Shown piece by piece: positions 6,032 to 63,906 of a stretch of DNA of 64,000 nucleotides. The DNA lies in assembly GCF_001905465.1 (NCBI RefSeq), contig NZ_LISX01000008.1:288280-352279 (forward strand). The letters are read 5' to 3'. The stretch is from Kitasatospora sp. CB01950 (lineage in GTDB: Bacteria; Actinomycetota; Actinomycetes; Streptomycetales; Streptomycetaceae). Every line of letters starts with the position of its first letter. The stretch's first letter is position 1. The notes under the pieces were generated by a model. The model did no database searches. It was not told where the DNA came from and worked only from the letters and a program-made list of their open reading frames with translations. A program made the position numbers and the translations under genes.

Positions 6032-6259
6032 ATGCACATCAAGTGGGCCGCTCTGGCCGAGACCGCGGGCGTCAGCCTGGCCATCACCCTCGCCGTCGTC
6101 ACCGTCTTCGCGCTGGGCAACCTGGCGCTGTCCCGCCGGGAGGCCGCCGTCGAGGCCGGCACCGGCAAGGGCACCCCGGCACTGGTCGCCGCAGGCCTGT
6201 GCTTCGCCGCCTGCGCGGCGGCGGTGGCGTACGGCATCTCACTGATCGCCGCCAAGTAA
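6032..6259 (+). CDS. small two-helix membrane protein, partner of Pit
   Basis: A 75-residue protein with two hydrophobic helices (about residues 8-32 and 48-72) separated by a short basic/acidic loop (SRREAAVEAGTGKG). GAGAGGA precedes the ATG at 6032 by about 10 bases, and the pit stop is 14 bases upstream. I recall similarly sized membrane proteins directly after pit in other streptomycetes, suggesting an accessory or stabilising role. No catalytic motif is visible; function unknown. Confidence 0.8.
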   Translation: MHIKWAALAETAGVSLAITLAVVTVFALGNLALSRREAAVEAGTGKGTPALVAAGLCFAACAAAVAYGISLIAAK

Positions 6260-6285
6260 CGCACCTCCGAGCCACCAGACACGAC

Positions 6286-6316
6286 GAAGGGCCCCGCCAC
6301 CCCGGCAGGGCCCTTC
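6286..6316. terminator. terminator after the pit operon
   Basis: A 13-base stem (6286-6298 with 6304-6316) with one mismatch and a 5-base loop, starting 26 bases after the small membrane gene. Its right arm is also the first part of the adjoining tandem repeat unit. Confidence 0.8.
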
Positions 6317-6710
6317 CCGCACGCCGGCAGCCCCACGCAGCCGTCAGCGACAGCGCAACACCGATCGCCACCGCACGCCCCACTCGGCAACGCCCCTGCC
6401 GCTCGCCACCGCCATCGGCAGCGCCACCCGGCAGGACCCCTTCTCGCACGCCGGCAGCCCCGCGTCGGCGCAGCCGTCAGCGACAGCGCGACGCCGATCG
6501 CCACCGCACGCCCCACTCGGCAACGCCCCTGCCGGCTACAGCCCTCGACCCCGGCGCCCCGCCCCGCCACCCGGCAGGGCCCTTCCCGCACGTCGGCAGC
6601 CCCGCGTCTGCGCAGCCGTCAGCGACAGCGCAACACCGATCGCCACCGCACGGCCCACTCGGCAACGCCCCTGCCGGCTACAGCCCTCGACCCCGGCGCC
6701 CCGCCCCGCC
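6302..6710. repeat. degenerate tandem repeat, three units of about 126-143 bases
   Basis: Three consecutive copies begin at 6302, 6428 and 6571. Units 2 and 3 (143 and 140 bases) differ at only a handful of positions; unit 1 lacks part of the 3' segment. Each unit opens with a sequence like the right arm of the terminator at 6286-6316. It fills the gap between two convergent transcription units and carries no plausible gene on either strand. It probably arose by duplication of terminator-adjacent DNA. Confidence 0.85.
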
Positions 6711-6726
6711 GTTCGCCGAGGTCCCA

Positions 6727-6776
6727 ATGCGACGAAGGGCCCCCGCCGTCCATCCCGCCGGGGGCCCTTCTCGCAT
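6727..6776. terminator. terminator after the MFS exporter gene
   Basis: A perfect 12-base stem (6734-6745 with 6759-6770) extended by six more pairs (6727-6732 with 6771-6776) across a one-base bulge. It lies 13 bases beyond the exporter stop codon on the minus strand. Confidence 0.88.
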
Positions 6777-6789
6777 GTCGACAGGCAGG

Positions 6790-8361
6790 TCAGTCGGCGA
6801 CCAGTTCCACCGGCTTGGCCGGAGCCGGGGTCTCGTCCGCGCCGGTGCGCAGCGGCACCTCGCGGATGAACAGCACCAGCAGGAAGCCGACCGCGGCGAA
6901 CGGAGCGGCGACCAGGAAGACGGTGCCGACGCCGTGCCCGAACGCGTCGGTGATCAGCGGGACGATCGGTGCGGGCAGCTTGTGCAGGTCGGGGATGCCG
7001 TCGCCGCCGCCCAGCGGGGCGGGGATGCCGGCCTTGGCGAAGTTCTCCGCCGTGTAGGAGGCGACCTTGTGGCCGAGCAGCGCGCCGAGCGCGGAGACGC
7101 CCATCGCACCGCCCATGGTGCGGAAGAAGGTGACCACCGAGCTGGCCGCGCCGAGCTCGTTGCGCGGGACGGTGTTCTGCACCGCGAGCACCAGGTTCTG
7201 GCTGGTCAGGCCGAGGCCGATGCCGGCGATCAGCATGTAGAGCGAGAGCAGCGCGTACGAGGTGTCGGCCCGGGAGGTGCCCATCAGGCCGAGGCCGACG
7301 GCCAGCATGACGGTGCCGCCGACCAGGTAGCCCTTCCACTTGCCGTACTTGGTGATGAGCTTGCCGGCCACGGTCGAGGAGACCGCGAGGCCGAGGATCA
7401 TCGGCAGGGTGAGCAGGCCGGCCTGGGTGGGGGTCTTCTCCTTGGCGAGCTGGAAGTACTGGCCGAGGAAGGTGGTGGTGCCGTACATGCCGACGCCGAC
7501 GAACGCGGAGGCCACCGAGGCGAGCGCGACGGTGCGGTGCCGGAACAGGCCGAGCGGGATCAGCGGTTCGGCGGCGCGCTTCTCGACGGCGACGAACAGC
7601 CCGGCCAGCGCCAGGCCGCCGATCACCATCACCGCGGTCTGCCAGGACAGCCAGTCGTAGTTCTTGCCGGCCAGCGAGATCCAGATCATCAGCAGGCTGA
7701 CGGCGGCGGTGATCAGCACCGCGCCCAGGTAGTCGATCTTCGGCTTGCGGCTGGGGTGCTCGGGGAGCTTGAGGGTGCGCTGCAGTACGAAGATGGCGAG
7801 CAGGGCGAACGGGACGCCGACGTAGAAGCACCAGCGCCAGCCGAGCCAGGAGGTGTCCACGATGACGCCGCCGATCAGCGGGCCGCCGATGGTGGCGAGC
7901 GCGAAGACCGCGCCGAAGTAGCCGCTGTAGCGACCGCGCTCGCGCGGCGGGACCATCGCAGCCAGGCAGATCTGGCCGAGCGCGATCACACCGCCGGCGC
8001 CGATGCCCTGCAGCACGCGGCAGAAGATCAGCATGCCGATGCTCTGCGAGAGGCCGGCCAGCGCCGACGAGAGCACATAGATCACCATGGCGATCTGGAC
8101 CAGCAGCTTCTTGCTGACCAGGTCGGAGAGCTTGCCCCAGAGCGGGGTGGCGGCGGTGATCGACAGCAGGGCGGCGGTGACCACCCAGGTGTAGGCGGAC
8201 TCGCCGCCGTGCAGATCGTTGAGGATCCGCGGCAGCGCGTTGGAGACGACCGTGGAGGACAGCACGGCCACGAACAGGCCGAGGAGCAGGCCCGAGAGGG
8301 CTTCGAGCACTTGACGGTGCGACATCTGGGCTTGCGGGGCGGTCGGGTGGGTCGTCGACAT
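6790..8361 (-). CDS. DHA2-family MFS multidrug exporter, 14 transmembrane segments
   Basis: A 523-residue drug:proton antiporter. Motif A is seen in TPLWGKLSDLVSKKLL, motif C in ATIGGPLIGGVIVD, and the DHA2-type N-terminus in LFVAVLSSTVVSNALPRI. About 14 hydrophobic segments fit the EmrB/QacA type. The start is the ATG at 8361, preceded by AAGGAAG; an in-frame upstream start at 8394 would run into the operator region. The gene lies 105 bases downstream of a MarR-family regulator on the same strand, with two palindromes between them. It is therefore probably induced when the regulator binds a small toxic compound. Substrate unknown. Confidence 0.92.
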   Translation of the reverse strand: MSTTHPTAPQAQMSHRQVLEALSGLLLGLFVAVLSSTVVSNALPRILNDLHGGESAYTWVVTAALLSITAATPLWGKLSDLVSKKLLVQIAMVIYVLSSALAGLSQSIGMLIFCRVLQGIGAGGVIALGQICLAAMVPPRERGRYSGYFGAVFALATIGGPLIGGVIVDTSWLGWRWCFYVGVPFALLAIFVLQRTLKLPEHPSRKPKIDYLGAVLITAAVSLLMIWISLAGKNYDWLSWQTAVMVIGGLALAGLFVAVEKRAAEPLIPLGLFRHRTVALASVASAFVGVGMYGTTTFLGQYFQLAKEKTPTQAGLLTLPMILGLAVSSTVAGKLITKYGKWKGYLVGGTVMLAVGLGLMGTSRADTSYALLSLYMLIAGIGLGLTSQNLVLAVQNTVPRNELGAASSVVTFFRTMGGAMGVSALGALLGHKVASYTAENFAKAGIPAPLGGGDGIPDLHKLPAPIVPLITDAFGHGVGTVFLVAAPFAAVGFLLVLFIREVPLRTGADETPAPAKPVELVAD

Positions 8362-8384
8362 GCGCTTCCTTCGACTGAAAATTC

Positions 8385-8427
8385 GTTGCCTCAAGCAACT
8401 ATACGCAGATAGTTGACTAGGGCAACT
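8385..8427 (-). promoter_or_regulatory. two MarR-type operator palindromes
   Basis: Site 1 (8385-8399) is GTTGC-CTCAA-GCAAC, a perfect 5-base palindrome. Site 2 (8411-8427) is AGTTGACTAGGGCAACT, palindromic with one mismatch. Centres are 27 bases apart and both sites share AGTTGC/GCAACT half-sites. They lie 24-66 bases before the exporter ATG, where a MarR dimer would block transcription. Confidence 0.7.
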
Positions 8428-8466
8428 TTCTTCAAGCCCAGGTAAAGGAACCGTCGAAATCCCTGG

Positions 8467-8931
8467 TCAGACCCCTTCGGTCAGCTCGTTGAAGCGCTCC
8501 AGCAGCCGCGCGAAGTGTTCGAGCTCACCCAGCTCCCACCCCGCCAGCGAGGCCCGGAACCGCGCCATCCGCGCCACCCGGGCCGCCGCGAACCGCCGCT
8601 CGCCCTCCTCGGTCAGCGACACCAGCGAGGCCCGCCGGTCCAGCGGGTCGGTCTCCCGGCAGAGCAGCCCGAGCTCCTCGATCGCCCGGATCTGTCGGCT
8701 GACGGTGGCCTTGCCCACCCCGAAGTGCAGCCCGATGTCGGTCACCCGGGCCTGCCCGGACTCCCGGATGAAGGAGAGCAGCACGTACGCCCCGGCCTCC
8801 AGCTCGGGGTGCACCAGCCGGGAGACCTCGGCCGCCCGCGCCCGGCTGCGCCGGAACAGCGTCGCCACCTCGCGCTCGACCGCGAGAAATGCCAGTTCGG
8901 CGGCGTCCGGGTCCGCCACGGGGTCGTTCAT
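8467..8931 (-). CDS. MarR-family transcriptional regulator
   Basis: A 154-residue winged-helix regulator. The recognition region is VTDIGLHFGVGKATVSRQIRAIEEL, followed by the wing LLCRETDPLDRRASLVSLTEEG with the family's D-x-R-DRR-like signature. The start ATG at 8931 gives the usual MarR length; upstream in-frame starts would add an unlikely 35 residues. It sits upstream of the exporter gene on the same strand and divergent from a DUF3533 membrane gene, so it may control both. The palindromes at 8385-8427 are the likely binding sites. Confidence 0.9.
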   Translation of the reverse strand: MNDPVADPDAAELAFLAVEREVATLFRRSRARAAEVSRLVHPELEAGAYVLLSFIRESGQARVTDIGLHFGVGKATVSRQIRAIEELGLLCRETDPLDRRASLVSLTEEGERRFAAARVARMARFRASLAGWELGELEHFARLLERFNELTEGV

Positions 8932-9038
8932 GGCGCTCAGTATCGCGCAGGCCGCGCCTCCCTCGGCGCGCAACTGTTTCATGATATGAAGTATCCGTTT
9001 TGCGTACTGGCACCGGATTGATAGGGAGATGCCCACCC

Positions 9039-10073
9039 ATGGCAGAGCCTGCGAAGGGCTTCGTCGGCGAGCTCAAGGACGCGGTGACCCCCCGCGCGTT
9101 CTTCCTGGTGGTGGCCGTCCTGCTGCTCCAGCTCGGCTTCATCACCTCGTACGTGGGCGCGCTCCACCAGCCGAAGCCGCACGAGCTGTCGATCGCCGTG
9201 GTCGCACCGCCCGAGATCGCCCCGAAGCTGACCGCTGCCCTGGAGTCCGTCCCGGACAACGCGGTGCGCGCCTCCGTCGAACCCGACGTGGCCACCGCGC
9301 AGGCCCGGATCAAGGACCAGAAGATCTACGCCGCCTGGGTGTTCGACCCGGCCGGCACCCAGGACACCCTGCTGGTCGCCGAGGCCCGCGGCCCGGCCGC
9401 GTCCGGTGCCGCCGAGCTGATCGTCACCAAGGTGGCGGCGGCCCAGCACCGCACCGTCGAGGTGCAGGACACCATTCCGCTGGCCTCCGGCGACGGCAAG
9501 GGCCTGTCCAGCTTCTACCTGGTGGTCGGCTGGTGCGTCGGCGGCTACCTGGTCGCCTCGATCCTCGGCGTCAGCGCCGGCGCCCGTCCCGCCAACGTCC
9601 ACCGGGCCGGGCTGCGGCTCGGCACCCTGGCGCTCTACTCGGTCGCGGCGGGCCTCGGCGGCACGCTGATCACCGGGCCGATCCTGAACGCGCTGCCCGG
9701 CTCGATCCTGGCGCTGAGCGCCGTCGGAGCGCTGGTGGTGTTCTCGGTCGGCGCGTTCACCATGGCGCTGCAGTGCCTGTTCGACATCATCGGCATCGGC
9801 CTGGCCGTGCTGGTGTTCGTGGTGCTGGGCAACCCGAGTGCGGGCGGCGTCTACCCGCCGCCGCTGCTGCCGACGTTCTGGCGGGCCATCGGCGAGTGGA
9901 TCCCGAACGGTGCCGGCACCTCGGCCACCCGCTCGGTCGCCTACCTGGGCTCCTCCGCGATGGCGATGCCGCTGACGGTGCTGGCGGTCTGGGCCGCCAT
10001 CGGCGTCGCGGTCACCTTCGTCGCCGCGTCCCGCCGACCGTTCCTCGGCCGCCCCGCCCCGACGGAGGCGTGA
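9039..10073 (+). CDS. DUF3533 / ABC-2-like membrane protein
   Basis: A 344-residue protein. One transmembrane segment near residues 20-42 (FFLVVAVLLLQLGFITSYVG) is followed by an extracytoplasmic domain to about residue 160, then about five further segments. This is the layout of YhgE/Pip-like and DUF3533 proteins. AGGGAGA precedes the ATG at 9039. It is divergent from marR, so it may belong to the same stress-export response. No ATP-binding partner is adjacent. Biochemical function of the family is not established. Confidence 0.75.
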   Translation: MAEPAKGFVGELKDAVTPRAFFLVVAVLLLQLGFITSYVGALHQPKPHELSIAVVAPPEIAPKLTAALESVPDNAVRASVEPDVATAQARIKDQKIYAAWVFDPAGTQDTLLVAEARGPAASGAAELIVTKVAAAQHRTVEVQDTIPLASGDGKGLSSFYLVVGWCVGGYLVASILGVSAGARPANVHRAGLRLGTLALYSVAAGLGGTLITGPILNALPGSILALSAVGALVVFSVGAFTMALQCLFDIIGIGLAVLVFVVLGNPSAGGVYPPPLLPTFWRAIGEWIPNGAGTSATRSVAYLGSSAMAMPLTVLAVWAAIGVAVTFVAASRRPFLGRPAPTEA

Positions 10074-10098
10074 GCGGCCGGCACGCGCAGGGCGGGGG

Positions 10099-10680
10099 TC
10101 AGACCCGCTCCGGCTCCCGCCCCTGCTCGTCCGAGATCACCCGGTCCGACAGGTGGGTGAACACGAACCGGTTCATCGCCCAGTAACGGAACACCATCGC
10201 CACCAGCGTGCCGACGATCATGCCGCTGACGAAGTCGGCGACCTCCTGGGTGAAGTGGCTGACGTCCGGCTCGCGCAGGTCGAACACGTAGCGCGAGGCA
10301 GCCAGCGGAAGGTCGTTCACACCCACCGCGAGGGCGCTGACCACCACGAACAGGATCGCCTCACGCTGCTTGCCGGCGGCCCGGAACGACCACTGCCGGT
10401 TCAGCACGTACGACACACCGGTCGCGATCACGGTCGCGACGGTCAGGGCGACGATCGGCTTGGCCTCGAACACGGTCATCTTCAGGGCGAAGTTGATCAC
10501 CATGGTGAGCAGGAAGCACGTTCCTCCGACCACGAGGAACTTCACCAACTTGCGGTGCTTGACCAGGAACGGACGGAACGACTCCGGCACTGCGGTCAGC
10601 GCGCGCTGCGTAGGGGACGGCATGCCGGAAGTCTGCCACGGGCCCGGATCGGCAACCACCGAGGGCCGCGGAGTGGACAC
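10099..10680 (-). CDS. GtrA-family membrane protein
   Basis: A 193-residue protein with four hydrophobic helices typical of GtrA/DPMS-associated proteins: KFLVVGGTCFLLTMVINF, the motif SYVLNRQWSF, and a closing VFRYWAMNRFVF. Such proteins are thought to help flip or position polyprenyl-linked sugars. The GTG at 10680 follows GGAGGG by 7 bases and lies 21 bases after the lon stop, so it is probably the second gene of a lon operon. The ATG at 10623 is a possible shorter start but lacks a ribosome-binding site. Confidence 0.85.
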   Translation of the reverse strand: MSTPRPSVVADPGPWQTSGMPSPTQRALTAVPESFRPFLVKHRKLVKFLVVGGTCFLLTMVINFALKMTVFEAKPIVALTVATVIATGVSYVLNRQWSFRAAGKQREAILFVVVSALAVGVNDLPLAASRYVFDLREPDVSHFTQEVADFVSGMIVGTLVAMVFRYWAMNRFVFTHLSDRVISDEQGREPERV

Positions 10681-52280: not shown

Positions 52281-54695
52281 TTGACCGTCGCCGCCTCAGT
52301 CACCCTGCCGTCCCAGGGTTCCGCCGACGCCTTCACCGACCCCGGTGCGGCGCTGCTTCGGCTGCTCACCGACCGCAGCACCGACCTCCCCCAGGTGGAC
52401 CCCGGCCACGTCGCCGCCGCCGCGCTGCGCGGCCGCCACGCCGGTTCGGACTTCGCCGAGCTGCGCGGGCTGGCCGTGGAGGCCGCCGCGTCGATGATCG
52501 CCGAGGACCCGCAGTACTCGAAGCTGGCCGCGCGCCTGCTGGCGATGGAGATCGCCGACGAGGCCGCCACCCAGGGCGTCACCTCGTTCGCCGCCTCGAT
52601 CGCCGTCGGACACGCCGAGGGCCTGATCGGTGACGCCACCGCCGAGTTCGTCGCCGCGCACACCGAGCTGTTCGACTCGCTGATCGACGCCTCCGGCGAC
52701 GACCGCTTCGAGTACTTCGGCCTGCGCACCGTGCAGTCCCGCTACCTGCTGCGCCACCCGATCACCCGCAAGGTGGTCGAGACCCCGCAGCACTTCCTGC
52801 TGCGCGTCGCGGCGGGCCTGGCGGTCGGCACCTCCGAGCAGTCGGTGCTGGAGGTGGCCGAGCTCTACAAGCTGATGAGCCGCCTGGAGTACCTGACCAG
52901 CTCCCCCACGCTGTTCAACTCCGGCACCCGGCACCCGCAGATGTCCTCCTGCTACCTGCTGGACTCGCCGCTGGACAACCTGGACTCGATCTACAACCGG
53001 TACGCGCAGATCGCCCGGCTGTCCAAGCACGCCGGCGGCATCGGCCTGTCCTACTCGCGGATCCGCTCCCGCGGCTCGCTGATCCGCGGCACCAACGGCA
53101 AGTCGAACGGCATCGTCCCGTTCCTGCGCACCCTGGACTCCTCCGTGGCGGCGGTCAACCAGGGCGGCCGGCGCAAGGGCGCGGCCTGCGTGTACCTGGA
53201 GACCTGGCACGCCGACATCGAGGAGTTCCTGGAGCTCCGCGACAACACCGGCGAAGAGGCCCGGCGCACCCACAACCTGAACCTGGCGCACTGGATCCCG
53301 GACGAGTTCATGCGCCGCGTCAACGCCAACGAGGACTGGTCGCTGTTCTCCCCGGCGGACGTGCCCGAGCTGGTCGACCTGTGGGGCGCCGACTTCGACG
53401 AGGCCTACCGCAAGGCCGAGCTGGCCGGCAAGGCCGTGCGCACCATCCCCGCGCAGACCCTGTACGCCCGCATGATGCGCACCCTGGCGCAGACCGGCAA
53501 CGGCTGGATGACCTTCAAGGATGCCTCCAACCGGGCCGCCAACCAGACCGCGCTGCCGGGCCGCACGGTGCACTCCTCGAACCTGTGCACCGAGATCCTG
53601 GAGGTCACCGACGACTCCGAGACCGCGGTCTGCAACCTGGGCTCGGTCAACCTGGGCGCGCACGTCGCCCCGGGCGCCACCGCCGACGACCTGGTCAACG
53701 CCATGGACTGGGACCGCCTGGACGCCACCGTGCGCACCGCGGTGACCTTCCTCGACCGCGTGATCGACATCAACTTCTACCCGACCACCGAGGCCGGGAC
53801 GTCCAACTCCCGCTGGCGCCCGGTGGGCCTCGGCGTGATGGGCCTGCAGGACGTCTTCTTCAAGCTGCGGCTGGACTTCGACTCCGCCGAGGCGAAGGCG
53901 CTCTCCACGCTGATCTCCGAGCGCATCATGCTCACCGCGTACGAGCGCTCCGCGGACCTGGCCGAGCAGTTCGGCCGCCACGAGGCGTACGGCGAGACCC
54001 GCGCGGCCCGCGGCCAGCTTCACATCGACCACTTCGGCGCGGCCACCCCGCAGTGGACCGGCCGTTGGGACGCGCTGCGTGCCCGGATCGCCGAGACCGG
54101 CCTGCGCAACTCGCTGCTGCTGGCCATCGCGCCGACCGCGACCATCGCGTCCATCGCCGGCGTCTACGAGTGCATCGAGCCGCAGGTGTCCAACCTGTTC
54201 AAGCGCGAGACCCTGTCCGGCGAGTTCCTCCAGGTCAACCCGTACCTGGTGCGCGAGCTGAAGGAGCTCGGCGTCTGGGACCAGCAGACCCGGGACTCGC
54301 TGCGCGAGGCCAACGGCTCCGTGCAGGACTTCAAGTGGCTGCCGGAGAGCGTCCGTTCGCTGTACCGCACCGCGTGGGAGCTGCCGCAGCGCGCGCTGAT
54401 CGACCTGGCCGCCGCCCGGCAGCCGTACATCGACCAGAGCCAGTCGCTGAACCTGTTCATGGCCGCGCCGACCATCGGCAAGCTCTCCTCGATGTACGCC
54501 TACGCGTGGAAGGTCGGTCTGAAGACCACCTACTACCTGCGGTCCCGTCCGGCGACCCGGATCGCCCAGGCCGCGTCGGGCACCGCCCGCACCGCCGCCC
54601 CCGTGCCGGTGCAGACCCCGACCCTCAGCCAGGACGAGCAGGACGCCATCGCCTGCTCCCTGGAGAACCCCGAGTCCTGCGAGGCGTGCCAGTAA
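52281..54695 (+). CDS. nrdA: class Ia ribonucleotide reductase, alpha subunit
   Basis: An 804-residue catalytic subunit that reduces ribonucleoside diphosphates. Redox Cys lie in PQMSSCYLLDSPLDN and in SETAVCNLGSVNLG; the radical-site Cys is in HSSNLCTEIL. The flexible C-terminus ends in ESCEACQ, the thioredoxin-reducible pair. The N-terminal region (to about residue 130) is a long form of the ATP-cone area. Start TTG 52281, 8 bases after AGGAGAG. It overlaps nrdB by one base (TAATG). Controlled by the riboswitch and, probably, NrdR. Confidence 0.95.
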   Translation: MTVAASVTLPSQGSADAFTDPGAALLRLLTDRSTDLPQVDPGHVAAAALRGRHAGSDFAELRGLAVEAAASMIAEDPQYSKLAARLLAMEIADEAATQGVTSFAASIAVGHAEGLIGDATAEFVAAHTELFDSLIDASGDDRFEYFGLRTVQSRYLLRHPITRKVVETPQHFLLRVAAGLAVGTSEQSVLEVAELYKLMSRLEYLTSSPTLFNSGTRHPQMSSCYLLDSPLDNLDSIYNRYAQIARLSKHAGGIGLSYSRIRSRGSLIRGTNGKSNGIVPFLRTLDSSVAAVNQGGRRKGAACVYLETWHADIEEFLELRDNTGEEARRTHNLNLAHWIPDEFMRRVNANEDWSLFSPADVPELVDLWGADFDEAYRKAELAGKAVRTIPAQTLYARMMRTLAQTGNGWMTFKDASNRAANQTALPGRTVHSSNLCTEILEVTDDSETAVCNLGSVNLGAHVAPGATADDLVNAMDWDRLDATVRTAVTFLDRVIDINFYPTTEAGTSNSRWRPVGLGVMGLQDVFFKLRLDFDSAEAKALSTLISERIMLTAYERSADLAEQFGRHEAYGETRAARGQLHIDHFGAATPQWTGRWDALRARIAETGLRNSLLLAIAPTATIASIAGVYECIEPQVSNLFKRETLSGEFLQVNPYLVRELKELGVWDQQTRDSLREANGSVQDFKWLPESVRSLYRTAWELPQRALIDLAAARQPYIDQSQSLNLFMAAPTIGKLSSMYAYAWKVGLKTTYYLRSRPATRIAQAASGTARTAAPVPVQTPTLSQDEQDAIACSLENPESCEACQ

Positions 54696-55714
54696 TGAGC
54701 TCCGAAGACCAGAAGAAGATGCTGCTCGACCCGGGCTTCGAGCTGACCCTGCGTCCGATGCGCTACCCGTCGTTCTACGACCGGTACCGGGACGCGATCA
54801 AGAACACCTGGACCGTCGAGGAGGTGGACCTGCACTCCGACGTCGCCGACCTCGCCAAGCTCTCCGAGGGCGAGCGGCACATGATCGGCCGGCTGGTCGC
54901 GTTCTTCGCCACCGGTGACTCGATCGTCTCGAACAACGTGGTGCTGAGCCTCTACAAGCACATCAACTCGCCGGAGGCGCGGCTCTACCTGTCGCGGCAG
55001 CTGTTCGAGGAGGCCGTGCACGTCCAGTTCTACTTGACGCTGCTGGACACCTACCTGCCCGACCCGGAGGACCGCAACGCGGCTTTCGCCGCGGTGGAGA
55101 ACATCCCCTCCATCGCGCAGAAGGCGCAGTTCTGCTTCAAGTACATGAACGCGGTCGACCACATCGACTCGCTGCAGAGCAAGGAGGACCGGCGGGCCTT
55201 CCTGCTGAACCTGATCTGCTTCGCGGCGTGCGTCGAGGGCCTGTTCTTCTACGGCGCGTTCGCCTACGTGTACTGGTTCCGCAGCCGCGGCCTGCTGCAC
55301 GGCCTGGCGACCGGCACCAACTGGGTGTTCCGCGACGAGTCGATGCACATGGACTTCGCGTTCTCGGTGGTCGACACCGTCCGCGAGGAGGAGCCCGACC
55401 TCTTCGACGACAAGATGGCCCAGCAGGTCACCGAGATGCTGGAGGAGGCCGTCGAGGCCGAGCTCCAGTTCGCCCAGGACCTCTGCGGCGACGGCCTGCC
55501 CGGCATGAACACCGAGTCGATGCGCCAGTACCTGGAGGCCGTCGCCGACCAGCGCCTGGCCCGGCTCGGCCTGCCGATCCGCTACGGCTCGACCAACCCG
55601 TTCGGGTTCATGGAGCTGCAGAACGTCCAGGAGCTGACCAACTTCTTCGAGCGCCGGGTCTCCGCGTACCAGGTCGCCGTCGAGGGCTCGGTCTCCTTCG
55701 ACGACGACTTCTAG
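54695..55714 (+). CDS. nrdB: class Ia ribonucleotide reductase, beta (radical) subunit
   Basis: A 339-residue dinuclear-metal protein that holds the tyrosyl radical. Metal ligands are visible in LFEEAVHVQFY (E-x-x-H) and FRDESMHMDFAF (E-x-x-H); the likely radical Tyr lies in the same region as TLLDTYLP. C-terminus SVSFDDDF fits the peptide that docks on the alpha subunit. Coupled to nrdA by a one-base overlap. S. coelicolor has a third gene, nrdS, here; in this window a terminator follows directly and no nrdS is present. Confidence 0.95.
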   Translation: MSSEDQKKMLLDPGFELTLRPMRYPSFYDRYRDAIKNTWTVEEVDLHSDVADLAKLSEGERHMIGRLVAFFATGDSIVSNNVVLSLYKHINSPEARLYLSRQLFEEAVHVQFYLTLLDTYLPDPEDRNAAFAAVENIPSIAQKAQFCFKYMNAVDHIDSLQSKEDRRAFLLNLICFAACVEGLFFYGAFAYVYWFRSRGLLHGLATGTNWVFRDESMHMDFAFSVVDTVREEEPDLFDDKMAQQVTEMLEEAVEAELQFAQDLCGDGLPGMNTESMRQYLEAVADQRLARLGLPIRYGSTNPFGFMELQNVQELTNFFERRVSAYQVAVEGSVSFDDDF

Positions 55715-55744
55715 GCCGGACTCCGGGCCGACGCCGGAACGACC

Positions 55745-55785
55745 CGAGGGCCGCACCCCGCCGCAGAGCGGGGGTGCGGCCCTCG
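55745..55785. terminator. bidirectional terminator after nrdAB
   Basis: Perfect 15-base stem (55745-55759 with 55771-55785), 11-base loop, between convergent nrdB and the lectin-hydrolase gene. Confidence 0.92.
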
Positions 55786-55809
55786 GCCGTGTTCGGGGGC
55801 GGCGGCCGG

Positions 55810-57783
55810 TCAGCCGCGGCCGAAGGTGCCGCTGGCCCAGAGCGAGCCGCCGGTGGACGGGCTGCCGTCCCAGCGGTAGACCACGAAGTTGGCGTCGTCC
55901 TGGAGCAGGGCGTACGCCCCGGTGTTGCCGTAGGTGCCGGTGCTCCACAGGGCGGTGGTGCCGTCGGCCTTGTAGACCACCAGGTTGCCGTCGTCCTGCA
56001 TGGACAGGCGCGCGCCGGAGTTGCCGTAGGTGTTGGTGGACCAGATCGCGGCGCCGTCGCTGCGGCGGTAGATCACCAGGTTGCCGTCGTCCTGCATGAG
56101 CATCCGGACGGACGCCGACTGGATCCACTGGTTGGGGTACAGGGCCTGGCTGCGGCCGATCTTGGACGGGAAGGCCGCGGTGCCGGTGCCCCACAGCCCG
56201 CCGTTGCCCGACCCGCCGCCTCGGCGGTAGACCACCACGTTGCCGTCGTCCTGCACGGCGGTGTACGCGCCGGCGCTGGAGGTGTTGCTCGCCCACAGCG
56301 CGCCGCCGTTGCCGGGGCCGCCGTCCTTGCGGTAGACGACCAGGTTGCCGTCGTCCTGCATGACGGCGTACGCGCCGGGGTTGCCGTAGGTGTTGGTGCT
56401 CGCCAGGGCGCGGCCGCCGCCGACCTTCAGGGAGGTGACCAGGTTGCCGTCGGGCTGCATGGTCAGCTTGACCGAGTCGCTGCTGAGGCTCTGGCCGGAG
56501 GAGAGGCGCCGGCCGGGCTGCAGGGTGTTGCCGGAGCCGGGCCAGGTGACGTCCATGTAGCTGGCGTCGATGGCCATGCCGATGCCGCCGTAGGTCTCGG
56601 TGACATTGCCGGAGTACTGGTGGCCGCGACGGCCGTCCGTCCACTGGCCGGCGCCGACGGGCAGGCCCATGCCGGCGTCGCTCACGTCGTGGTGGGAGTT
56701 CCAGGCGGCGGCCCACAGCACGTCGGGCTGCGTGTAGGAACCGGTGGTCCAGCGGCTGGAGAGGTCCTTCACGCCGCTGGCGGCGCCGGTGTAGACGCCC
56801 GAGCGGTAGCCCTTGTTGTGCAGCTGCGTCGTCCACCCGAAGAAGTATTCGAGGACCCGGTCGCGGTAGAGGGAGGAGTCGTAGCCCTCCATGTCGGTGT
56901 AGAGCACCGAGCCCTGTTGGAAGCCGAGGGCGGCGGCCTTGGCGACCGCGTCGTCGGCGGCGTCGGAGCCCTGCCGGCGGGCGACCGCCGGGTCGGCGTC
57001 GACCAGCAGGTTGCCGATGGAGGCCTGGCGGCCGACGTACAGCGGCATGAAGCCCCAGCCCTCGGCGTTGCGGGCGTCCACCCAGCTCTTCGTGGGCGAG
57101 GCGCAGGCCTGCGCGGGCCCGCCGAGGTACACGCTGGTGCCCCGGTACGGGGAGTTCGCCGCCCAGGCCGCCATGGTGGTGTCCGACGGCGCGGCGCAGC
57201 GGTCGAAGGCGTACCCGGCGATGTCGGTGCGCAGGGCGCCGGTCGCGGCGGCGGCCTTGGGGGCGGCCGGCGCGGTGGCGTGGACCCCGGCGTCGAGGCT
57301 CGCGGTCTCCAGGATCCGCCGGACCTGGTCGGACGAGACGGCGTAGGTCGCCGTCACCTCCAGGCCGCCGGCGCCGAGCCGGGCCTGGATCTGGCGGCCG
57401 GCGGCCGCGTCGTCCAGGACGCTCTTGCCGATCGGCCGGCCGGGGACGACGGTGCCCTGGGTGCGGCCGGCCACCGCGGGCTGGATCAGCAGGCCGTCGG
57501 AGCGGCCGGGCGCGAGGTGCGCCGGGCAGTCCTGGTCCGCGCCGGGGGTGCCCAGGTAGACGGCGTTCACGTCGAACCGGACGCAGGTACGGGGGTTGGC
57601 GGCGAGGTCGACGACCGGCCAGTCCGCGGGTACCCGGGCGTGGAAGCCCTGGTAGTCGACCTGCTTGGCGCCCTGGCCCGCAGACGGCTGCGCCCCCGCG
57701 GCCCAGGCGTCGGGGACGGCCGCGGCCAGTCCCGTGACGGCGAGCGCGATGATCGCGGCCCGCCCTGCTGCACGACGTTGCAT
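55810..57783 (-). CDS. secreted DUF1906 glycoside-hydrolase-like protein with two bulb-lectin domains
   Basis: A 657-residue exported protein. Signal peptide residues 1-28 (cleavage after DAWA). A unique region to about 185, with Cys pairs. Residues of about 188-410 match DUF1906 (GYAFDRCAAPSDTTMAAW; GFMPLYVGRQAS; LYTDMEGYD), a TIM-barrel-like glycosidase fold related to lysozyme-type cell-wall enzymes. Residues 421-535 and 540-657 are two mannose-binding bulb-lectin (MMBL) domains with QDDGNLVVY-type sugar sites at about 475, 510, 565, 597 and 629 and a weaker one at 443. ATG 57783. Could bind and cut foreign or host polysaccharide. Confidence 0.88.
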   Translation of the reverse strand: MQRRAAGRAAIIALAVTGLAAAVPDAWAAGAQPSAGQGAKQVDYQGFHARVPADWPVVDLAANPRTCVRFDVNAVYLGTPGADQDCPAHLAPGRSDGLLIQPAVAGRTQGTVVPGRPIGKSVLDDAAAGRQIQARLGAGGLEVTATYAVSSDQVRRILETASLDAGVHATAPAAPKAAAATGALRTDIAGYAFDRCAAPSDTTMAAWAANSPYRGTSVYLGGPAQACASPTKSWVDARNAEGWGFMPLYVGRQASIGNLLVDADPAVARRQGSDAADDAVAKAAALGFQQGSVLYTDMEGYDSSLYRDRVLEYFFGWTTQLHNKGYRSGVYTGAASGVKDLSSRWTTGSYTQPDVLWAAAWNSHHDVSDAGMGLPVGAGQWTDGRRGHQYSGNVTETYGGIGMAIDASYMDVTWPGSGNTLQPGRRLSSGQSLSSDSVKLTMQPDGNLVTSLKVGGGRALASTNTYGNPGAYAVMQDDGNLVVYRKDGGPGNGGALWASNTSSAGAYTAVQDDGNVVVYRRGGGSGNGGLWGTGTAAFPSKIGRSQALYPNQWIQSASVRMLMQDDGNLVIYRRSDGAAIWSTNTYGNSGARLSMQDDGNLVVYKADGTTALWSTGTYGNTGAYALLQDDANFVVYRWDGSPSTGGSLWASGTFGRG

Positions 57784-57853
57784 GCTGATGCCCCACCCCT
57801 GAAGTCGTGTCCGACCTGACATGTGGACAGGACTGTAGCGGACGGAAACGACG

Positions 57854-57886
57854 AAGGGCCGTACTCGAACTTCGAGTGCGGCCCTT
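57854..57886. terminator. terminator after def
   Basis: A 16-base stem with one G-U pair (57854-57869 with 57871-57886) and T-run on the plus strand; 14 bases beyond the def stop on the minus strand. Confidence 0.88.
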
Positions 57887-57899
57887 TTGTGATCGTCCG

Positions 57900-58532
57900 T
57901 CAGCTGTTGGGCGCCGTGGCGTACTTGGGGGTGCCGTCGGCCATCTGCCGCAGGGCGTCCTTGCGGTCGCGCTTGGAGAGCCGGTCGATGTACAGGTACC
58001 CGTACAGGTGGTCGGTCTCGTGCTGGAGGCAGCGGGCGAAGAAGCCGGTGCCCTCGACCCGGATCGGGTTGCCGTGCTTGTCCTGGCCGTTGACGGCCGC
58101 GTAGCCGGGGCGGGCGAGCTCCTGGTAGGCGGTGGGCACCGACAGGCAGCCCTCCTGGCCGTCGTCCAGGCTGCGGCGGCCCGCGGGGAGCTCCTCCAGC
58201 ACCGGGTTGACGACGTGCCCGACGTGGCGGACGCCCTCGTCGTCGGGGCAGTCGTAGACGAAGACCTTCAGGTCGACGCCGATCTGGTTGGCGGCCAGGC
58301 CGACGCCCTCGGCGGCGTACATCGACTGGAACATGTCGTCGATGAGCGCGGCGAGGTCGTCGTCGAAGGCGGTGACGGTCTGCGTCTCGCGGTGCAGGAC
58401 CGGGTTGCCGACCACGGTGATCGGGCGGGCGGTGCCCTTGCCCGGGTCGGGCAGATCGCCGACCACCTGCTGGACGTCGCCGCCCGGGTGCTCGTGGTCG
58501 TGCTCGTGCTCGTGGTCGTGGTGCTCGGCCAT
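57900..58532 (-). CDS. def: peptide deformylase with His-rich N-terminal tail
   Basis: A 210-residue metalloenzyme that removes the formyl group from nascent proteins. Motif 1 is [10 protein letters not shown], motif 2 EGCLSVP (metal Cys), motif 3 [11 protein letters not shown] (metal His pair and catalytic Glu). The first 17 residues are an unusual run of His, Asp and Glu ([12 protein letters not shown]). ATG at 58532. The tail precedes the usual def start region ([13 protein letters not shown]) and may bind metal; its purpose is unknown. Confidence 0.95.
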
Positions 58533-62641: not shown

Positions 62642-63001
62642 TCACTCCGCGGTGGCGACGGCGGAGCCGTGACCGGCCGCGCCCTCGACCGTCATCTCCA
62701 TGCTGACGGAGGACACCTCGACCGTCGGGCCCTCGCCGGGGCGCTGGCCCGCGCGGATCGAGTCGATCCGGGCCAGCACCTTCGCCCGGAGGTCGGAGGG
62801 CGTGTCGTCGCAGCCGCACGAGCGCTTGATCAGCGCCTTGATGGCCTGCTCCAGGCCGTACTTCTCCAGGCACGGCGAGCACTCGTCGAAGTGCACCCGC
62901 AGCTTGGCGCAGTCGCCCTCGGGCATCTCGTTGTCGAGGAATTCGTAGAGGTGGTCGAGCACCTCTCCACACTCGGTCTCGTGCGGATCGCCGCAGCTCA
63001 T
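62642..63001 (-). CDS. rsrA: zinc-binding redox anti-sigma factor RsrA
   Basis: A 119-residue ZAS-family protein. Cys3, Cys11, Cys31, His37, Cys41 and Cys44 fall where the S. coelicolor protein has them; HFDECSPC is the H-x3-C-x2-C zinc motif. It holds sigma-R inactive until disulfide stress oxidises its thiols and releases zinc. The C-terminal 35 residues are longer and variable. ATG 63001 overlaps the sigR stop (ATGA), so the pair is translationally coupled. Confidence 0.95.
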
Positions 63002-63906
63002 GAGCCCGCGCCCTTCGCTTCGTGCCCTGCACCGGTACCGGCCGGGACCAGCCCCCGCTCGCGGGCGTAGTCCTCCAGCATGCCGCGCAACTGGCGGCGA
63101 CCACGGTGCAGTCGGGACATCACCGTACCGATGGGTGTACCCATGATGTCCGCGATCTCCTTGTACGCAAAGCCCTCGACGTCCGCGAGATAGACCGCGA
63201 TCCGGAACTCCTCCGGAATGGCCTGCAGGGCGTCCTTCACATCGCTGTCCGGCAGGTGGTCGAGCGCCTGCGCCTCGGCGGAGCGGAGCCCCGTCGACAT
63301 GTGCGACTCGGCGCGCGCCAGCTGCCAGTCCTCGATCTCCTCGGCCGCGGTGCGTTGCGGTTCGCGCTGCTTCTTGCGGTACGAGTTGATGAACGTGTTG
63401 GTGAGGATGCGGTACAGCCAGGCCTTGAGGTTGGTGCCCTCACGGAACTGGTGGAACGACGCGTACGCCTTGGCGAACGCCTCCTGGAGCAGGTCCTCCG
63501 CGTCGGCCGGGTTGCGGGTCATCCGCAGCGCCGCCGAGTACATCGGATCCAGGAACCCCAGCGCGTCGCGCTCGAAGCGCTCGCGCCTGGCCTCCTCGCT
63601 CTCGTTCTCGGACACCCTGAAGGTGTCCTCGCCGATCACCTCGGCCAGTTCGTCGCCGGTGAGCTGGTCGCTCTCCGGACGGCCCTGGTCGGTGCCTGAA
63701 GCACCCGACACGGCCGCGTCATCGGTCCCGACGACCGGACCCACCTCCTCGGTCAGCTGCACACGGCCCACTTCGGGCCGACCCGCAAGCGAGGATATCG
63801 GGCTGACCGGCTTCTCGCCCGCGACAACCCACTCCGACCAGTCCGGCACGAGCGACGACTCGGCCGCCCGCTCGTCGGGCCGCTCGGGGCACGCGATCGA
63901 AACCAT
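62998..63906 (-). CDS. sigR: thiol-oxidative-stress sigma factor SigR (long form)
   Basis: A 302-residue ECF sigma factor. Region 2 contains [39 protein letters not shown] and [20 protein letters not shown]; region 4 holds [20 protein letters not shown] with [11 protein letters not shown] start at ATG 63906 gives a long form; GTG 63744 would give a shorter form 54 residues less, matching the roughly 55-residue extension of the unstable long SigR in S. coelicolor. A sigma-R promoter upstream shows autoregulation. Confidence 0.94.

What the first reader, a model, noticed from the sequence alone, without database searches (positions are those of the whole stretch)
55810..57783. Secreted DUF1906 hydrolase fused to two tandem bulb-lectin (MMBL) domains
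One exported protein joins a lysozyme-like glycosidase fold to two QDDGNLVVY-type lectin domains. Tandem MMBL domains are the architecture of LlpA lectin-like bacteriocins, while DUF1906 domains are linked to cell-envelope or peptidoglycan attack. The combination suggests a secreted antibacterial or polysaccharide-targeting enzyme in which the lectins aim the hydrolase. At least five intact sugar-site motifs are present, plus one weaker.
Basis: partly seen in the sequence, partly recalled or inferred. Interest (0 to 1): 0.6.

Follow-up and report, generated by a model that had tools for sequence, protein, structure and literature searches.

The report
Lectin-tailed putative cell-wall hydrolase
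A soil actinomycete (Kitasatospora) secretes a protein that joins a lysozyme-like enzyme fold to two sugar-gripping plant-bulb-type lectin domains, probably to cut cell walls that carry a particular sugar; the parts are known, but this combination occurs only in a few relatives and its target is untested.

Summary
ORF 57783-55810 (-), 657 aa, has a signal peptide, an uncatalogued N-domain (39-160), a PF08924/DUF1906 domain (E 1.3e-40) and two MMBL lectin domains with exactly five intact QxDxNxVxY motifs plus one weaker. A confident AlphaFold model (pLDDT 88.9) matches Rv2525c (Z 18) and GH25 lysozymes (Z 13-15). Its lectins match UmbA4, the lectin subunit of Streptomyces umbrella toxins (Z 20.3), and gastrodianin. 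The acidic cluster D194/D297/E299/D406 is intact.

The gene is a solitary unit in a variable slot between nrdB and peptide deformylase. Of 70 Kitasatospora genomes, 11 hold this family there; at least 24 have an almost empty slot. The full architecture was seen in 1 of 17 Streptomycetaceae genera. Elsewhere the same N-domain + DUF1906 core carries beta-propeller, FG-GAP or ricin-type tails. In the slot one relative lost the lectins, one keeps a single lectin domain, and one lost the acidic residues but kept its lectins.

Most likely it is a lectin-targeted wall hydrolase used against other bacteria, analogous to albusin B and paralleling UmbA lectin swapping. It is not an LlpA bacteriocin by definition. 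Enzyme activity, glycan target and killing are untested. New variant of a known kind.

The parts
55810..57783 (-). whole gene, 657 aa secreted DUF1906-tandem MMBL protein
57697..57783 (-). Sec-type signal peptide, residues 1-29 (by eye)
   Evidence: sequence; AF2 residues 1-35 low confidence
57289..57669 (-). N-terminal domain, residues 39-165, conserved across the family, no catalogued family; AF2 pLDDT 91 when folded alone; weak PsbP/Tsi3-like matches only (Z 5 or less)
56542..57228 (-). PF08924 / DUF1906 Rv2525c-like GH25-like barrel, residues 186-414
57202..57204 (-). D194, conserved acidic residue
   Evidence: 40 of 42 rows of A2
56887..56895 (-). D297-M-E299, the DxE motif; E299 conserved in 41 of 42 rows; aligned (low significance) to the DxE of GH25
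56566..56568 (-). D406, conserved acidic residue
   Evidence: 40 of 41 rows
56179..56538 (-). MMBL (B_lectin) domain 1, residues 416-535
55813..56175 (-). MMBL (B_lectin) domain 2, residues 537-657
56431..56457 (-). weak sugar-site motif QPDGNLVTS, residues 443-451
56332..56358 (-). intact sugar-site motif QDDGNLVVY, residues 476-484
56227..56253 (-). intact sugar-site motif QDDGNVVVY, residues 511-519
56068..56094 (-). intact sugar-site motif QDDGNLVIY, residues 564-572
55972..55998 (-). intact sugar-site motif QDDGNLVVY, residues 596-604
55876..55902 (-). intact sugar-site motif QDDANFVVY, residues 628-636
57854..57886 (-). hairpin between the deformylase gene and this gene (likely terminator of the upstream gene)
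   Evidence: 61-nt region z -3.9
55744..55786 (-). strong hairpin in the convergent gap towards nrdB (likely terminator)
   Evidence: 101-nt region z -3.3
57900..58532 (-). flank of the slot: peptide deformylase
   Evidence: PF01327 E 3.2e-46
54695..55714 (+). flank of the slot: ribonucleotide reductase small subunit (nrdB)
   Evidence: PF00268 E 2.4e-83

Best explanation
A secreted, lectin-targeted GH25-like wall hydrolase. The signal peptide exports it (inferred from sequence). The two MMBL domains, with five intact sugar sites, bind a repeated glycan on a cell surface (fold and motifs shown; ligand unknown). Multivalent binding holds the Rv2525c-like barrel, whose acidic cluster D194/D297/E299/D406 is intact, against the wall, where it cuts a glycan, most likely peptidoglycan (inferred). 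The slot is variable, and relatives carry different lectin-like tails on the same enzyme core, so the tail most likely sets the target. The likeliest use is antagonism of other bacteria, such as related actinomycetes (inferred).
For: PF08924 and B_lectin above curated cut-offs. AF2 pLDDT 88.9, pTM 0.78. Barrel matches: Rv2525c 4pmq Z 18.0, 1sfs Z 19.8, LytC with pneumococcal peptidoglycan fragment 2wwd Z 15.1, phage endolysins 4krt Z 14.1 and Cpl-1 Z about 13; lectin matches: UmbA4 9oee Z 20.3, 36% identity, rmsd 1.2, and gastrodianin Z 18.5. Acidic residues near-invariant over 42 rows. Five strict sugar motifs. Variable slot, lectin loss or reduction in place, tail swaps elsewhere. Precedents: albusin B, a B-lectin + peptidase M15 bacteriocin of Ruminococcus albus (PMC6240691), and UmbA lectins that set umbrella-toxin target species and include bulb lectins (PMC13274773).
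Against: Activity of Rv2525c has not been established (PMC10480492) and I found no report of activity for the family. Similarity to GH25 is structural; sequence profiles barely align (hhalign probability 7.6%). No killing, binding or expression data. The lectins are not faster-evolving than the other domains among slot relatives, so no point-mutation arms-race signature is seen. In UmbA4 the beta-propeller, not the bulb lectin, was seen to contact the receptor. One relative (G080) has replaced the acidic residues, so catalysis is not always needed.
Confidence: 0.45

Rival explanations
1. Own-wall remodelling enzyme: the lectins anchor the hydrolase to the producer's own surface polymer during hyphal growth, branching or sporulation.
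For: Chromosomal solitary gene next to housekeeping genes, no immunity-like neighbour; Rv2525c is listed among proposed MtrA-regulated peptidoglycan hydrolases of M. tuberculosis (PMC10480492).
Against: Present in only 11 of 70 Kitasatospora genomes at this slot and absent from many whose slot is nearly closed; lectin lost, reduced or swapped between relatives.
Confidence: 0.25
2. Antifungal or polysaccharide-foraging enzyme: mannose-type lectins bind fungal mannan or another environmental glycan, and the barrel degrades a non-peptidoglycan polysaccharide.
For: Among the closest single-domain lectin matches is gastrodianin, deposited as antifungal protein GAFP-1; QxDxNxVxY is the mannose-site motif.
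Against: The best structural lectin match is an actinomycete toxin lectin; the nearest structural relatives of the barrel are bacterial and phage wall enzymes.
Confidence: 0.12
3. Binding-only agglutinin: activity lies in the tandem lectins, as in LlpA, and the barrel is a scaffold or binds wall glycan without cutting.
For: G080 relative has E299Q, D194E, D406N and W361L, lacks the N-domain, yet keeps five strict lectin motifs; the window's genome holds nine stand-alone secreted-looking tandem MMBL proteins without an enzyme.
Against: The acidic residues are kept in every other MMBL-bearing slot relative and across nearly all of 42 diverse rows; G061 keeps the barrel but has no lectin.
Confidence: 0.18

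Closest known systems
Rv2525c of Mycobacterium tuberculosis (PF08924; PDB 4pmn/4pmo/4pmq/4pmr)
   Same: Barrel fold (Z 18.0, 188 residues, rmsd 2.9), secreted
   Different: 14% identity over the aligned part; deposited as Tat-secreted, whereas this signal peptide shows no clear Tat motif (by eye); no lectin tail reported in the sources seen
UmbA proteins of Streptomyces umbrella toxins (UmbA4, PDB 9oee)
   Same: Secreted Streptomycetaceae protein with C-terminal lectins, including bulb lectins and beta-propellers, that vary between relatives
   Different: UmbA has a trypsin-like N-terminal domain that binds UmbB; here N-domain + DUF1906 and no such domain
Albusin B of Ruminococcus albus 7
   Same: B-lectin joined to a wall-directed hydrolase domain in a Gram-positive; reported bacteriocin
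   Different: One B-lectin first and peptidase M15 second; here glycosidase-like barrel first and two lectins last
LlpA lectin-like bacteriocins (putidacin L1, pyocin L1)
   Same: Two tandem MMBL domains, QxDxNxVxY sites
   Different: LlpA has no other enzyme domain, no signal sequence, a C-terminal hairpin extension and a different domain orientation
GH25 modular lysozymes/endolysins (LytC, Cpl-1)
   Same: Barrel fold, enzyme plus binding-module layout
   Different: Choline-binding or other modules rather than MMBL; the window protein has no GH25 Pfam match

Membership tests
PF08924 Rv2525c-like (DUF1906) | Profile match above the curated cut-off | tested here: met
   140 bits against 27.2
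PF08924 Rv2525c-like (DUF1906) | Fold of Rv2525c | tested here: met
   4pmq Z 18.0 over 188 residues
PF08924 Rv2525c-like (DUF1906) | Glycoside hydrolase activity | not testable with these tools
   Not established for Rv2525c either (PMC10480492)
B_lectin / MMBL (PF01453) | Profile match above the curated cut-off | tested here: met
   53 bits against 32.4
B_lectin / MMBL (PF01453) | QxDxNxVxY sugar motifs | tested here: met
   Five strict of six
B_lectin / MMBL (PF01453) | Sugar binding | not testable with these tools
   Needs purified protein
LlpA lectin-like bacteriocin (NF033557) | Model score above 275 bits | tested here: not met
   128.4 bits
LlpA lectin-like bacteriocin (NF033557) | Two MMBL domains and no further toxin or enzyme domain | tested here: not met
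   DUF1906 plus N-domain present
LlpA lectin-like bacteriocin (NF033557) | C-terminal beta-hairpin extension | tested here: not met
   Last motif ends at residue 636 and the protein at 657, with only the closing strand modelled; LlpA has Pro254-His275, though some LlpA-like sequences (Xanthomonas, Arthrobacter) lack it
LlpA lectin-like bacteriocin (NF033557) | Selective killing of relatives | not testable with these tools
   No assay
UmbA umbrella-toxin lectin subunit | N-terminal trypsin-like domain | tested here: not met
   No trypsin match in Pfam or PDB searches; relative L039 of G018 does have it
UmbA umbrella-toxin lectin subunit | Variable C-terminal lectin | tested here: met
   Tails differ between relatives
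GH25 lysozyme (PF01183) | Profile match above the curated cut-off | tested here: not met
   No match at E 1 for the window protein; relative L005 19.3 bits against 27
GH25 lysozyme (PF01183) | Barrel fold with DxE catalytic motif | tested here: inconclusive
   Z 13-15 to GH25 structures; hhalign aligns DxE to DxE but with probability 7.6%

The most novel reading that the evidence does not exclude
A class of interchangeable-lectin wall hydrolases in actinomycetes: one conserved core (uncatalogued N-domain + Rv2525c barrel) re-aimed at different competitors by swapping the C-terminal lectin (tandem bulb lectin, beta-propeller, FG-GAP, ricin type), parallel to UmbA lectin swapping but carrying the killing enzyme on the same chain and, like LlpA, needing no immunity gene.
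Probability: 0.25. Interest if true: 0.7.

Novelty: new variant of a known kind. Interest (0 to 1): 0.42.

Why it matters
Activity of Rv2525c, and as far as found of its family, has not been shown, although the family is widespread in actinomycetes. A natural set with intact, lectin-less, single-lectin and acid-site-replaced versions, all in the same chromosomal slot, allows the enzyme and the targeting role to be tested separately. If the lectin sets the target, it would be a compact counterpart of umbrella-toxin targeting.

Tried and rejected
LlpA membership: rejected on score and architecture and, from structure, on a different tandem orientation. UmbA membership: rejected, no trypsin-like domain. 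Phage origin: no match in 50,697 phage records, and no IMG/VR relative confirmed. Defence system: no PADLOC match. N-domain identity: no Pfam match, no PDB sequence match; Foldseek gave nothing at E 0.001 or better and VIA only Z 5 or less, to PsbP-like proteins and the Tse3 immunity protein Tsi3 among others, too weak to use. Lectin hypervariability: per-domain identities among slot relatives are about even, so not supported. Recent recruitment from the genome's stand-alone lectins: not supported for domain 1, which groups with other fused domains (91), apart from stand-alone first domains (97*); placement of domain 2 is unresolved. UmbC in the own genome: only two ALF repeats in one 419-aa frame, not followed. 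A minus-strand request to the repeat finder failed.

Full report
What is there. The ORF at 57783-55810 (-) encodes 657 aa. Pfam finds PF08924 (residues 206-409, E 1.3e-40) and B_lectin (53 bits). Five strict QxDxNxVxY motifs and one weaker are present; a shuffled copy gives 0.00045 on average.

Structure. AF2 on a 55-row alignment gave pLDDT 88.9 and pTM 0.78. By VIA-align the barrel matches 1sfs (Z 19.8), Rv2525c 4pmq (Z 18.0), LytC (Z 15.1), the phiSM101 endolysin (Z 14.1) and Cpl-1 (Z about 13). The lectins match UmbA4 of umbrella toxins (9oee, Z 20.3, rmsd 1.2 over 115 residues, 36% identity) and gastrodianin (Z 18.5). LlpA and pyocin L1 align with rmsd about 16 A over the tandem, so the two domains are arranged differently in this model.

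Catalytic site. D194, D297, E299 and D406 are conserved in 40-41 of the 41-42 rows that cover them. Profile comparison with GH25 aligns DxE with DxE but is weak (probability 7.6%). That the domain is an active glycosidase is therefore inferred. The literature found states that Rv2525c activity has not been established (PMC10480492).

Genomic setting. The organism belongs to the genus Kitasatospora: genomes of its genus correspond to records named Kitasatospora and to Streptomyces tateyamensis (compared). The gene lies between nrdB and peptide deformylase, with hairpins on both sides. Of the 70 Kitasatospora genomes, 11 hold this family in that slot; 24 have 70-166 bp between the flanking matches; 24 hold no relative but 1.3-5.7 kb of other sequence; 11 could not be resolved because the deformylase was not found within the stretch fetched. 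The other cargo is diverse. The full architecture was found in one of 17 genera among 395 Streptomycetaceae genomes at E 1e-90.

Modularity. The same N-domain + DUF1906 core occurs in other actinomycetes with FG-GAP repeats, beta-propeller lectins (CV39L-like, below the model cut-off), Golvesin_C, and, judged from sequence, SH3-like and ricin-type tails. Within the slot, K. cheerisanensis (G063) has one MMBL domain, G061 ends after the barrel, and G080 lacks the N-domain and has D194E, E299Q, W361L and D406N while keeping five strict lectin motifs. On a tree of the barrel the slot proteins form one supported group (99*) that also holds a FG-GAP-tailed protein from another locus (L052).

Lectin repertoire. 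The window's genome encodes nine further secreted-looking tandem MMBL proteins of about 280-330 aa, five in one tandem array. Another Kitasatospora (G018) has a trypsin-like + MMBL protein that matches UmbA4 (240 bits).

Mechanism. Export, wall binding by the lectin tandem, and local cleavage by the barrel is the best reading (0.45). Shown: domains, predicted fold, intact motifs, variable slot, tail changes. Inferred: export, ligand, hydrolysis, use against others. Albusin B (B-lectin + peptidase M15; PMC6240691) and UmbA lectin targeting (PMC13274773) are the closest working precedents. In UmbA4 the receptor contacts were seen on the beta-propeller, not on the bulb lectin, so the ligand cannot be carried over.

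Rivals. Own-wall remodelling (0.25), binding-only agglutinin (0.18), antifungal or foraging enzyme (0.12). The patchy presence and tail changes speak against an essential own-wall role; the G080 version speaks for a lectin role without catalysis.

Limits. No predictor of signal peptides was available. Tail types were read from sequences and profile hits. Support values in the trees are SH-aLRT only. The 11 unresolved slots may change the counts.

Noticed in passing
L029 (G000:C9:34000-50000), 6076-10635: Array of five head-to-tail genes, each for a secreted-looking tandem MMBL protein of LlpA size; four more copies elsewhere in the genome.
   Followed up: partly
window 55715-57899 (slot nrdB - deformylase) and L080-L138: Variable insertion slot in Kitasatospora with diverse cargo, nearly closed in 24 of 70 genomes.
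   Followed up: partly
L039 4398-6797 (G018): UmbA-like protein: trypsin-like domain followed by MMBL domains, 240 bits to UmbA4.
   Followed up: partly
L050 / L076 (G080): Slot relative with concerted replacement of the acidic residues (D194E, E299Q, D406N) but intact lectin motifs; a likely natural pseudoenzyme.
   Followed up: partly
L038 5851-11856 (G005): Two neighbouring roughly 1000-aa proteins with several MMBL domains and, by eye, FG-GAP- and ricin-like parts.
   Followed up: no
window 57289-57669: Uncatalogued N-terminal domain with two conserved cysteines, shared by actinomycete DUF1906 proteins; weak PsbP/Tsi3-like fold matches.
   Followed up: partly
window 62642-63906: Sigma factor and zinc-type anti-sigma pair that looks like SigR/RsrA (by eye).
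   Followed up: no
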